From: Mailhella sp.
GTDB lineage: Bacteria; Desulfobacterota; Desulfovibrionia; Desulfovibrionales; Desulfovibrionaceae
DNA length: 7,989 bases
Reading direction: 5' to 3'
Assembly: GCA_024404335.1 (NCBI GenBank)
Contig: JAKSQA010000036.1
Span: forward strand, 1-7,989
In this document: piece by piece, positions 3,055-5,923 of the stretch
How the letters are laid out: each line of letters begins with the position of its first letter
How positions within the stretch are numbered: position 1 is the stretch's first letter
Position numbers and translations under genes: made by a program
The notes under the pieces: generated by a model
Told to the model about the DNA's origin: nothing
Databases searched by the model: none
What the model saw: only the letters and a program-made list of their open reading frames with translations

Positions 3055-4541
3055 CCATATCACTTGAAGAACTCTGCACACGGCTCAGGAGCAGCTCTAT
3101 AGCCATCCGCACGGATTCCAGGACTGTCCGACCGGGAGACATCTTCGTCGCCCTCCCCCCTGCGGTCCCAGGCGCTCCGGACAGACGAGTCGAGTATGCA
3201 TCCTCCGCCTCATCCGCCGGAGCGGGATGGATCGTAGTTCCGGAAAGCCTGCTTGATTCCCTGACGACCGATGCCATCAAAGTTCCCTGTGTTGACTGCA
3301 GGGAGGGCCTGGGGCGCCTTGCCGCATCGCTTTACGGCACGGATTCCTCCGCCATGCCGGTCATCGCAATCACCGGCACCAACGGCAAGACCACCTGCAC
3401 CTATCTTCTGGAGCATCTTTTCCGCAGTGCGGGAAGAAGCGCCGGCGTGCTCGGAACAATCAGCTACCGATGGCCGGGGCACGACGAAGCCGCCCCGCTT
3501 ACGACTCCCGACTGCCTGACGATCCACGCATCTTTCAAGGCCATGCGTGACGCGGGCGCCTGCGCGGCTCTCATGGAGGTCTCCTCCCATTCAATCGATC
3601 AGAAACGCATCGCCGGCATCCCTTTCACGGCCGTCGCATTCACAAATCTCACCCAGGACCATCTGGACTACCATAAGACCCTGGAAGCCTATTTCAGCGT
3701 AAAGGCCAGACTCTTCACCGACTTCCCGCGCGACGACAAGGCCATGGTCATAAATGCGGACGACGAGCACGGACGCCGACTGCTTGAGATGCTTCCCAGC
3801 GCAATGGGATTCGGCCTCTCCGCTCCTCTGCCCGGAAGGGACTACCTCCATGCCGCGGTTCTCAAGGCTGACACCTCCGGCCTTCTTCTGCGCATGCGGC
3901 TCCACCAAGGCGGCACATGCACCCGGGAATGGGAGATGTCCAGCCCTCTTGTCGGACTCCACAACGCAAGCAACCTGCTCACTGTAAGCGCGCTTGCCCT
4001 CTCCATCGGCTTCAAGCCGGCAGACCTCGCATGCTTTTCCGATTTCATGGGCGTTCCGGGACGTCTTGAAAGGATTCCCGTCCCCTCGAGCCGTTTTGCC
4101 GGTGCTGAGGGCACCGGGGTCTTCGTCGACTATGCACACACGCCTGACGCCCTCATCCGCGTGCTCGACGCACTCAGAGCCGCATCTTTCTCCCGCATCA
4201 TCACCGTCTTCGGCTGCGGCGGAGACCGGGACAGGACAAAACGTCCGCTGATGGGGGAAGCCGTCGCATCCCGCAGCGACATAGTCGTCGTCACATCGGA
4301 CAACCCAAGGACGGAAAACCCCGAGGCCATTCTTGACGACATCATGCCCGGCCTGTCCTCTGCCGCAGAGCTCCACAGGGAAGCCGACCGGAAGAAGGCC
4401 CTTGGGCTCGCAGTTTCCATGCTCCGTCCGGGAGACGCCCTCCTGGTCGCAGGCAAGGGACATGAGGACTACCAGATCATCGGAACGGTCAAACACCACT
4501 TCAGCGATCAGGAAACACTCAGGGAGTTGATGGGATGCTGA
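3051..4541 (+). CDS. murE: UDP-MurNAc-L-Ala-D-Glu:meso-diaminopimelate ligase MurE
   Basis: MurE is the cytoplasmic ATP-dependent ligase that adds the third residue of the peptidoglycan stem peptide. The 496-residue length is normal. The N-terminal UDP-binding domain includes TDSRTVRPGDIFVAL (about 22-36). The central domain has the P-loop GTNGKTT with K113, the TTPD substrate loop (about 149-152), the NLTQDHLDYH block, and K218 in VKARLF, the position of the carbamylated lysine. The C-terminal domain has the FGCGGDRDRTKRPLM block, DNPR (D417-R420) and GKGHEDYQ (H471-E472). DNPR is the signature of meso-DAP rather than L-lysine specificity, which fits a Gram-negative wall. No key residue appears missing. 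The ATG at 3051 has GGAAAG five bases upstream. The 3' end overlaps murF by seven bases, implying coupled translation. Confidence 0.97.
   Translation: MTISLEELCTRLRSSSIAIRTDSRTVRPGDIFVALPPAVPGAPDRRVEYASSASSAGAGWIVVPESLLDSLTTDAIKVPCVDCREGLGRLAASLYGTDSSAMPVIAITGTNGKTTCTYLLEHLFRSAGRSAGVLGTISYRWPGHDEAAPLTTPDCLTIHASFKAMRDAGACAALMEVSSHSIDQKRIAGIPFTAVAFTNLTQDHLDYHKTLEAYFSVKARLFTDFPRDDKAMVINADDEHGRRLLEMLPSAMGFGLSAPLPGRDYLHAAVLKADTSGLLLRMRLHQGGTCTREWEMSSPLVGLHNASNLLTVSALALSIGFKPADLACFSDFMGVPGRLERIPVPSSRFAGAEGTGVFVDYAHTPDALIRVLDALRAASFSRIITVFGCGGDRDRTKRPLMGEAVASRSDIVVVTSDNPRTENPEAILDDIMPGLSSAAELHREADRKKALGLAVSMLRPGDALLVAGKGHEDYQIIGTVKHHFSDQETLRELMGC
4521..4526 (+). promoter_or_regulatory. Ribosome binding site for murF
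   Basis: AGGGAG lies within the last codons of murE, eight bases before the murF ATG at 4535. It supports that start and the seven-base overlap between the two genes. Confidence 0.7.
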
Positions 4542-5923
4542 TATCACTCGCACAGGCTGCGGAATACATGAACGCCGAAATCATCGGCTCTCGCCACACC
4601 ATGATAACCGGCGCAGCCTATGACAACCGCTCCGTACTGCCCGGCGAGCTTTTCGTAGCCATCAAAGGCGAACGCAGCGACGGCCACGATTTCGCCGAGG
4701 CAGCCGTCGGAGCCGGAGCCGCAGCGGTGCTTGCCGAGCACGATCCCTTCGGCGGCGCCAATACGGCCCCCATACTTCTCACGGACAACAGCGTGCTGGC
4801 CCTCGGGCGGCTCGCACATGCCTGCAGGAAGAACTTCTCCGGAAAGGTCGTCGGCATTACCGGTACGGCCGGCAAGACAACGACCAAAGAGCTTCTCGCG
4901 TCCATCCTTTCCGTACGGGGCAAAACCGCACGCAGCATGTAGAATCTCAACACCCAGGTCGGAATGCCCGTATCCATCCTGCGTTCCGACGGCGACGAGA
5001 TGTTCTGGGTGCTTGAAGCCGGCATAAGCCACCCGGAGGATATGGACGAGCTCGGCCCCGTCATGGAACCCGACATAGCCATCGTGCTCAACGCGGGAAC
5101 AGGCCACTCGCTCGGCCTCGGAGGGAAGGGCGCGGCCCACTACAAGTCCAGGCTTCTCAAGCATACGGCGGCCGGAGGAAAGGCCCTTGTGAGCGCCGAC
5201 TACCCCGACCTGGTGAAGGAAGCCCTTGCGGTGAGAAGCGACTGCATCTTCTTCACGGCCGAAGGCGCGGATGCCGCCTATTCCGCCGAGTACCTCGGTA
5301 TGGGCAATGACGGACGAGGCCGCTACAGACTGCTTCTCAACGGTACCGAGCTCATGGCGGACTCCCGGCTTGCGGGAAGCTATGCAGCTGAGAACATCAT
5401 AGCCGCTGCCGCTGCCGCCCATCTGCTCGGCCTGTCCCCCGAAGAAATCGCGGAAGGCATAGCCAATGCCCCCACGCCCGACCAGCGCTTTGCATACTGC
5501 GAAGCCGGAGGCTGGACCGTCATCGACGATACCTACAACGCCAATCCGCTCTCCATGAGGCGCATGATGGAAGCGGCTCGGGACAGGATCGGAGACGGCA
5601 CGCTCGTCTTCGTCCTCGGCGAAATGCTCGAACTCGGAGACGAAGCCGTCCAGTCCCACCGTGAAATCGGGCGTCTGGCTGCCGAACTCGGCTGCAGCGG
5701 CCTCCTCTGGTATGGCGGCCATGCCGACGACGTGAGGAACGGCTTTGAAGAGGCGGGAGCGAAAGGCTCATTCCACCGCCTGGAAAACCACCAGGATTTC
5801 ATTCCCGAACTCAAGAAACTGCTGTCCGCCATTCCCGAAAAGAGCACGAAGGCCGTGCTTTTCAAAGGTTCGCGTGGAAACAGGCTTGAAAAACTCGTAA
5901 AGCTCTTCATGGAAGCCGTCTGA
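4535..5923 (+). CDS. murF: UDP-MurNAc-tripeptide:D-Ala-D-Ala ligase MurF, interrupted by an in-frame TAG
   Basis: MurF adds the D-Ala-D-Ala dipeptide to UDP-MurNAc-tripeptide in the cytoplasm, the last soluble step. Read through its internal stop, the frame gives 462 codons, a normal MurF length. The N-terminal domain includes DNRSVLPGELFVAIKGERSDGHDF (about 29-52). The P-loop GTAGKTTTKELL has K114. Codon 136 is TAG (4940-4942), immediately before NLNTQVGMP, the conserved 'N.N..iG.P' block. After it, still in the same frame, come EAGISHPEDMDELG, the GHSLGLG...AHYKSRLL block (catalytic His and probable carbamylated Lys), DDTYNANPLSM, LGEMLELGDEA and FKGSRGNRLEKL. Only the stop breaks the gene. 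The upstream piece (135 residues) keeps the P-loop but lacks most of the catalytic domain. A restart at ATG 4964 would lack the P-loop. Neither half should work alone. It could be a base error, a pseudogene or a read-through codon. The ordinary terminal stop is TGA, one base before mraY. Confidence 0.93.
4940..4942 (+). other. In-frame TAG (amber) at murF codon 136
   Basis: The reading frames on both sides are identical, so this is a nonsense codon and not a frameshift. One base change from AAG (Lys), CAG (Gln), GAG (Glu), TGG (Trp), TTG (Leu), TCG (Ser), TAC or TAT (Tyr) would make it. The position precedes a conserved Asn and is usually variable in MurF as far as I recall, so many residues might be tolerated there. 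Confidence 0.95.

What the first reader, a model, noticed from the sequence alone, without database searches (positions are those of the whole stretch)
4535..5923. Essential gene murF split by a single in-frame TAG with intact sequence on both sides
Codon 136 is TAG, while the same frame continues for 326 more codons with every recognisable MurF motif conserved. A decayed pseudogene would normally show further damage, and MurF is essential in walled bacteria. The remaining explanations are a base-calling error, a very recent nonsense mutation (perhaps with a second murF copy elsewhere), or real amber read-through. The neighbouring ftsI irregularity raises the chance of a poor-quality draft or metagenomic sequence.
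Basis: partly seen in the sequence, partly recalled or inferred. Interest (0 to 1): 0.7.

Follow-up and report, generated by a model that had tools for sequence, protein, structure and literature searches.

The report
Isolated stop codon in murF
A draft genome of an uncultured Mailhella-type bacterium carries one stop codon in the middle of its wall-building gene murF; this is likely an error of the draft sequence, although an oddly built tyrosine tRNA in the same draft leaves open that the cell would read through it.

Summary
In detail: codon 136 of murF (window 4940-4942) is TAG, and 326 intact codons follow to TGA at 5921. The window is one whole contig of a draft Mailhella-type genome (1.42 Mb, 316 contigs, 69% complete). 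The stop is unique among what I saw: 16 of 16 strong genus matches and 80 of 80 MurF loci of named genomes (some the same contigs) are open. No second murF was found. 150 listed homologues have Leu (81) or Met (56) at this column, never Tyr or Gln.

In half the draft (81 contigs) I judged three more genes split by a lone TAG (yicC, a MocR-type regulator, an RND efflux adaptor) and one doubtful case; the same scan of a single-contig relative gave none by eye. Amber recoding is not supported: TAG ends 165 of 428 ORFs, back-up stops are not enriched, yicC and the MocR gene end in TAG, no CUA tRNA, PylS or PylD was found, and TAG is anyway 57-66% of expected nonsense. Best reading: sequence or assembly error, next a genuine nonsense mutation.

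One oddity stays open: the only tRNA-Tyr found has two broken anticodon-stem pairs, a lost U8 and a broken variable-arm pair. Short anticodon stems are known to promote stop read-through.

The parts
1..573 (+). mraW (rsmH), 3' part
   Evidence: PF01795 E 6.8e-60
570..872 (+). ftsL-like small ORF (named by place and layout; no Pfam hit)
882..2978 (+). ftsI (penicillin-binding protein); 3' end possibly out of frame
   Evidence: PF00905 E 4e-74; C-terminus compared with G016
3051..4541 (+). murE (named by domains and place)
   Evidence: PF08245, PF02875
4535..4939 (+). murF, part before the stop (135 codons, includes the P-loop GTAGKTTT)
   Evidence: TIGR01143 2-103/418, E 1.7e-32
4940..4942 (+). 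in-frame TAG, codon 136
4943..5923 (+). murF, part after the stop (326 codons and TGA)
   Evidence: TIGR01143 108-418/418, E 7.7e-60; TGA
4964..4966 (+). first ATG after the stop; a restart here would lose NLNTQVG, whose N, N, Q and G are kept in 146-150 of 150 homologues
5925..7010 (+). mraY
   Evidence: PF00953, PF10555
7019..7987 (+). murD, 5' part, cut by the contig end (named by domains and place)
   Evidence: PF08245, PF21799 below its cut-off

Best explanation
The TAG splits an otherwise intact murF in this draft genome, and it is likely a base-level or assembly error of the draft, so the living cell would likely carry an unbroken murF. Shown: the stop, the intact flanks, its absence from every other copy examined, no second copy found, and a fragmented, incomplete draft in which I judged three further genes to be split by one lone stop each. 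Inferred: that reads would show a sense codon there. The calls do not separate an error from a true nonsense mutation caught in one strain.
For: G000 has 316 contigs, 69.32% completeness and 2.16% contamination. murF gives one strong match in each of 16 other genus genomes, none with a stop, and 80 of 80 further-listed loci are open (at least four are the same contigs). In 81 of 316 contigs (473 ORFs, 187,528 codons) the scan gave 57 same-frame stops; read by eye, five are interior TAG (murF, yicC, MocR-type gene, RND adaptor, a doubtful Gate-domain gene), none TAA, one TGA at a selenocysteine-like site. The same scan of G016 (472 ORFs, 186,890 codons) gave 43, none judged interior. TAG is expected in 57-66% of single-base nonsense in this codon usage, P(5 of 5) 0.06-0.12. 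Two pairs of contig ends overlap at about 94% identity, a sign of mixed strains or repeats.
Against: No reads were available. Random errors should also give TAA and TGA; none was judged interior, though numbers are small. The usual Leu and Met codons are two or three bases from TAG and TTG is 1.1% of Leu codons, so one miscalled base from the relatives' residue is not the easy route. Met just before the stop is not among the eight commonest residues there (147 of 150 homologues), so more than one base is unusual locally. Uniform errors do not explain tRNA-Tyr, with three broken pairs in 86 bases, against none in the 8 other tRNAs (608 bases) that could be compared. Frameshifts are scarce: one frameshift-like pair (L066, contig end), none.
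Confidence: 0.5

Rival explanations
1. A genuine nonsense mutation, recent or carried by one strain, that the assembly happened to pick; the cell line is failing, or a copy outside the recovered 69% complements it.
For: Four well supported split genes among 473 ORFs is a rate that ordinary pseudogenes could give (recalled); mixed strains are suggested by contig-end overlaps at 94% identity; Belinky et al. report in-frame stops to be widespread in bacterial genes (PMC7918605, abstract and passages).
Against: MurF is essential in walled bacteria (recalled); no second copy found in G000, one strong match in relatives; frameshifts, which pseudogenes should also show, are scarce (one pair, none).
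Confidence: 0.3
2. Amber read-through by a relaxed near-cognate tRNA: the tRNA-Tyr(GUA), whose anticodon stem has lost its top and bottom pairs, would read UAG as Tyr and make full-length MurF.
For: tRNA-Tyr of G000 differs from that of G016 at 8 of 86 bases; the top and bottom pairs of the anticodon stem are mismatched, U8 is A, and a variable-arm pair is broken. One copy was found, 91% identical to G016's, where the 14 other full-length genus matches are 94-100%; four more genomes matched over 51-66 of 86 bases only. The interior stops found are all TAG except the selenocysteine-like TGA. The MocR-type TAG sits at a Tyr column in 12 of 13 relatives, the 13th misaligned. Shortened anticodon stems let tRNA-Trp read UGA in E. 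coli and protists; stems of 2, 3, 6 or 7 bp are 0.2% of bacterial tRNAs (PMC13092985: abstract, passages, section 17, part 1 of 3 of section 22).
Against: TAG ends 165 of 428 ORFs in G000 against 138 of 448 in G016, so TAG is not avoided. A second stop within 10 codons follows TAG less often (20 of 157) than TGA (42 of 191) or TAA (16 of 64). yicC and the MocR gene also end in TAG. 0 of 150 MurF homologues have Tyr at the column. GUA reading UAG is not shown in the parts of that paper that I saw.
Confidence: 0.1
3. Classic recoding of UAG by pyrrolysine or by a suppressor tRNA with a CUA anticodon.
For: Bilophila genomes hold the pyrrolysine genes (PMC7593587, passages; that it belongs to this family is recalled); two of 119 family genomes have a near full-length PylD match, one over the cut-off; only 21 tRNA genes were found in G000 against 66 in G016, so one could be missing.
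Against: 0 of 19 genus genomes over the PylS cut-off; PylD in G000 17.7 bits against a cut-off of 150.05; PylB and PylC were not searched. No CUA tRNA among those called. The residues of relatives differ between sites.
Confidence: 0.03
4. A split enzyme: translation stops at TAG and restarts at ATG 4964, giving two MurF pieces that work together.
For: An ATG begins after 21 bases, with CAGG ending five bases before it.
Against: The restart skips residues kept in 146-150 of 150 homologues.
Confidence: 0.02

Closest known systems
In-frame stop codons in bacterial genes (Belinky et al. 2021, PMC7918605; abstract and passages seen)
   Same: A lone stop in a gene with an intact frame on both sides.
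   Different: That study counts only stops at one position in two or more genomes, to reduce sequencing error; here the stop is in one genome only.
4-bp anticodon-stem tRNAs that read stops (Fakih et al. 2026, PMC13092985; abstract, passages, section 17, part 1 of 3 of section 22 seen)
   Same: A normal anticodon with a shortened anticodon stem beside in-frame stops.
   Different: There tRNA-Trp reads UGA, and UGA use is lowered in 13 of 19 orders; here it would be tRNA-Tyr with a 3-bp stem and UAG, and TAG use is not lower than in G016.
Pyrrolysine in Bilophila (PMC7593587; passages seen)
   Same: In-frame TAG in a genus that I recall to be of the same family.
   Different: PylS and PylD were not found here; murF is no methylamine methyltransferase.

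Membership tests
MurF (TIGR01143) | Whole protein matches the model end to end | tested here: met
   Halves cover 2-103 and 108-418 of 418
MurF (TIGR01143) | Single uninterrupted reading frame | tested here: not met
   TAG at 4940-4942
Pyrrolysine (UAG) recoding | PylS present | tested here: not met
   0 of 19 genus genomes over the cut-off of 178.15 bits, best 29.4; one of 14 control genomes is over it; G000 is 69% complete
Pyrrolysine (UAG) recoding | PylD present | tested here: not met
   G000 best 17.7 bits, cut-off 150.05; G000 is 69% complete
Pyrrolysine (UAG) recoding | PylB and PylC present | not tested
   no search made
Cognate amber suppression | tRNA with CUA anticodon | tested here: inconclusive
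   None among the tRNAs called, but only 21 tRNA genes found against 66 in G016
Short anticodon-stem stop read-through | tRNA near-cognate to the stop with a shortened anticodon stem | tested here: met
   tRNA-Tyr GUA with both end pairs of the stem broken
Short anticodon-stem stop read-through | Use of that stop as terminator is lowered | tested here: not met
   TAG 165 of 428 in G000, 138 of 448 in G016
Short anticodon-stem stop read-through | Read-through product or reporter shown | not testable with these tools
   needs proteomics or a reporter
Conserved in-frame stop (Belinky et al.) | Same stop position in two or more genomes | tested here: not met
   0 of 16 genus matches, 0 of 80 listed loci, partly the same contigs

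The most novel reading that the evidence does not exclude
This Mailhella-type bacterium reads UAG as tyrosine with its tRNA-Tyr, a GUA tRNA whose anticodon stem has shrunk to three pairs, so murF and at least three other genes are made whole through in-frame TAGs while TAG still ends many genes: a partial, anticodon-independent amber code.
Probability: 0.08. Interest if true: 0.85.

Novelty: not a real feature. Interest (0 to 1): 0.22.

Why it matters
If it is an error, it is a caution for reading gene loss or recoding from a single fragmentary draft. If reads confirm both the stop and the altered tRNA-Tyr, it would be a lead to UAG read-through by a short-stem tRNA-Tyr, beyond what the paper that I saw shows for tRNA-Trp and UGA.

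Tried and rejected
One search used a wrong family (TIGR02912 is a sulfite reductase subunit) and says nothing about pyrrolysine. One search (genome contigs with the single protein) found no relative; one search repeated it with an alignment. The first coding scan was too loose; refined it. The G016 control was trained on shadow frames and is void; replace it. The tblastn survey (96 in-frame stops) is swamped by shadow frames; besides murF it shows one 97% match across a TGA at L104:4816, not examined and perhaps rRNA, and one frameshift-like pair at L066. In the stricter (152 matches, 52,450 codons, called frames only) 14 stops are listed, most in leader or tail stretches of the alignments, no frameshift, and murF does not show. 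A fold of 104 bases from the stop on gave z -2.0 and the window has no Rfam match; not pursued. Paper searches gave nothing useful; no Mailhella paper was among the 15 listed.

Full report
What is there. The window is the whole contig G000:C247 of a draft genome with 316 contigs and 69% completeness. It carries a cell-wall cluster mraW-ftsL-ftsI-murE-murF-mraY-murD (some names by place). Among the named MurF hits the closest are Mailhella, and contigs of genus genomes G010, G013 and G011 have the lengths of named contigs of uncultured Mailhella, so the genus is taken as Mailhella; G009 has the length of one titled uncultured Desulfovibrio. murF runs from 4535 to 5923 with TAG at 4940-4942 and TGA at the end. 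Both parts match consecutive stretches of the MurF model.

Is the stop shared? No. Among 18 other genus genomes, 16 gave a strong murF match and none of these holds a stop; two, one of them 97% complete, gave no match. In 80 MurF loci of named genomes there is no stop in 33,943 codons, the last 12 of each locus not counted; at least four are the same contigs as genus copies. Of 150 homologues listed have Leu and 56 Met at the column, then Arg 4, Ala 4, Lys 3, Val 1, Gly 1. Met, which precedes the stop here, is not among the eight commonest residues of that column (147 of 150).

Second copy? The other matches in G000 are weak (22.7 bits or less); two lie in murE and murD of this contig, the third was not identified. 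The draft is incomplete, so a copy elsewhere cannot be excluded, but the relatives have one strong match each.

Is it the only broken gene? I took 81 of 316 contigs, 693,471 bases. A coding-potential scan found 57 same-frame stops with coding-like flanks; I read all 57 by eye. Most look like gene ends with a start codon near, and five doubtful ones have different Pfam families on the two sides. Judged interior: murF; yicC (halves match 2-174 and 183-291 of TIGR00255); a MocR-type regulator (12-55 and 58-450 of NF052286); an RND periplasmic adaptor (16-100 and 103-377 of the AcrA model NF011604); and, less surely, a Gate-domain membrane protein whose upstream part matches nothing. All are TAG. 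One TGA lies in a HesB-like motif, GG*SGPRL (recalled; neither piece matched Pfam), and a selenocysteine tRNA is in the sample. In G016, a single contig, the same scan gave 43 candidates; read by eye none looks interior, though a few have no start codon near. By the filter G000 keeps 15 candidates and G016 14. By homology to part of G016, one frameshift-like pair showed and none.

Is TAG special? With this genome's codon usage 57-66% of single-base nonsense changes give TAG, so five of five has probability 0.06-0.12; for the four well supported cases the same shares give 0.11-0.19. TAG ends 165 of 428 ORFs with a stop and 138 of 448 in G016. A further stop within ten codons follows TAG in 20 of 157, TGA in 42 of 191, TAA in 16 of 64. 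yicC and the MocR gene end in TAG themselves. The relatives' residues at the sites differ: Leu or Met in murF (16 of 16), Tyr in the MocR gene (12 of 13, one misaligned), variable in yicC (15). So a uniform new meaning of TAG is unlikely.

Decoding genes. 0 of 19 genus genomes are over the PylS cut-off, and PylD in G000 is far below its own, although one of 119 family genomes is over it and another just below. PylB and PylC were not searched. Bilophila genomes hold pyrrolysine genes (PMC7593587, passages). No CUA tRNA was called in G000, but only 21 tRNA genes were found against 66 in G016.

The odd tRNA. The one tRNA-Tyr found in G000 is missed by ARAGORN at its default and found at a relaxed setting with anticodon GTA. 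Against G016 it differs at 8 of 86 bases. Two are a compensating pair, but three break pairs: the top and bottom of the anticodon stem (27-43 and 31-39 in canonical numbers, which are mine) and one in the variable arm; U8 has become A. The eight other tRNAs that could be compared, 608 bases, show no broken pair; ten further kinds had no partner of equal length and anticodon in the G016 set or were not compared. One match was found in G000, at 91% the lowest of the 15 full-length genus matches; four genomes matched only in part. tRNAs with short anticodon stems can read near-cognate stops, shown for tRNA-Trp and UGA, and stems of 2, 3, 6 or 7 bp are 0.2% of bacterial tRNAs (PMC13092985). This could be a real relaxed tRNA, a local assembly fault, or a pseudogene; the letters alone do not say.

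Verdict. The stop is real in the deposited letters and ordinary in kind. Error or mixed-strain artefact is the best single reading (0.5), genuine nonsense next (0.3). Read-through by the odd tRNA-Tyr is the most novel reading not excluded (0.08-0.1), and it runs against the unreduced use of TAG. All this rests on one incomplete draft, half of which was not examined, and on judging gene ends by eye.

Noticed in passing
G000 contig 74, 2277-2362 (L121:1358-1443): tRNA-Tyr(GTA) with two broken anticodon-stem pairs, U8 changed to A and a broken variable-arm pair; missed by ARAGORN at its default.
   Followed up: partly
L096:3117, L099:429, L095:6815, L112:6660 (minus strand): Further genes split by one in-frame TAG: yicC, a MocR-type regulator, an RND efflux adaptor, and a doubtful Gate-domain membrane protein.
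   Followed up: partly
L098:9153: In-frame TGA in a short HesB-like ORF (GG*SGPRL, motif recalled, no Pfam hit), likely a selenocysteine codon; a tRNA-SeC is in the sampled contigs.
   Followed up: no
L083:4324-4473, L084:9236-9421, L098:9817-9955, L100:7802-7988, L110:1416-1588, L112:6958-7142, L184:1-72, L186:3245-3424: A dispersed repeat of about 70-185 bases, 85-94% alike, in at least eight contigs of this draft.
   Followed up: no
L090:12704-12895 and L200:6034-6225: Contig ends overlap over 192 bases at 94.3% without gaps, suggesting mixed strains or a repeat; L088 and L189 show a shorter case.
   Followed up: no
window 2930-3053: The ftsI reading frame ends early next to C-rich stretches compared with G016; another frame runs on to a stop that overlaps the murE start.
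   Followed up: partly
L066:2-864 (minus strand): A frameshift-like pair of matches, 93-95% identical to G016 although murF is about 60%; perhaps a mobile or foreign piece.
   Followed up: no
L255, L256: PylD-like genes in two of 119 genomes of the family, one over the cut-off.
   Followed up: no
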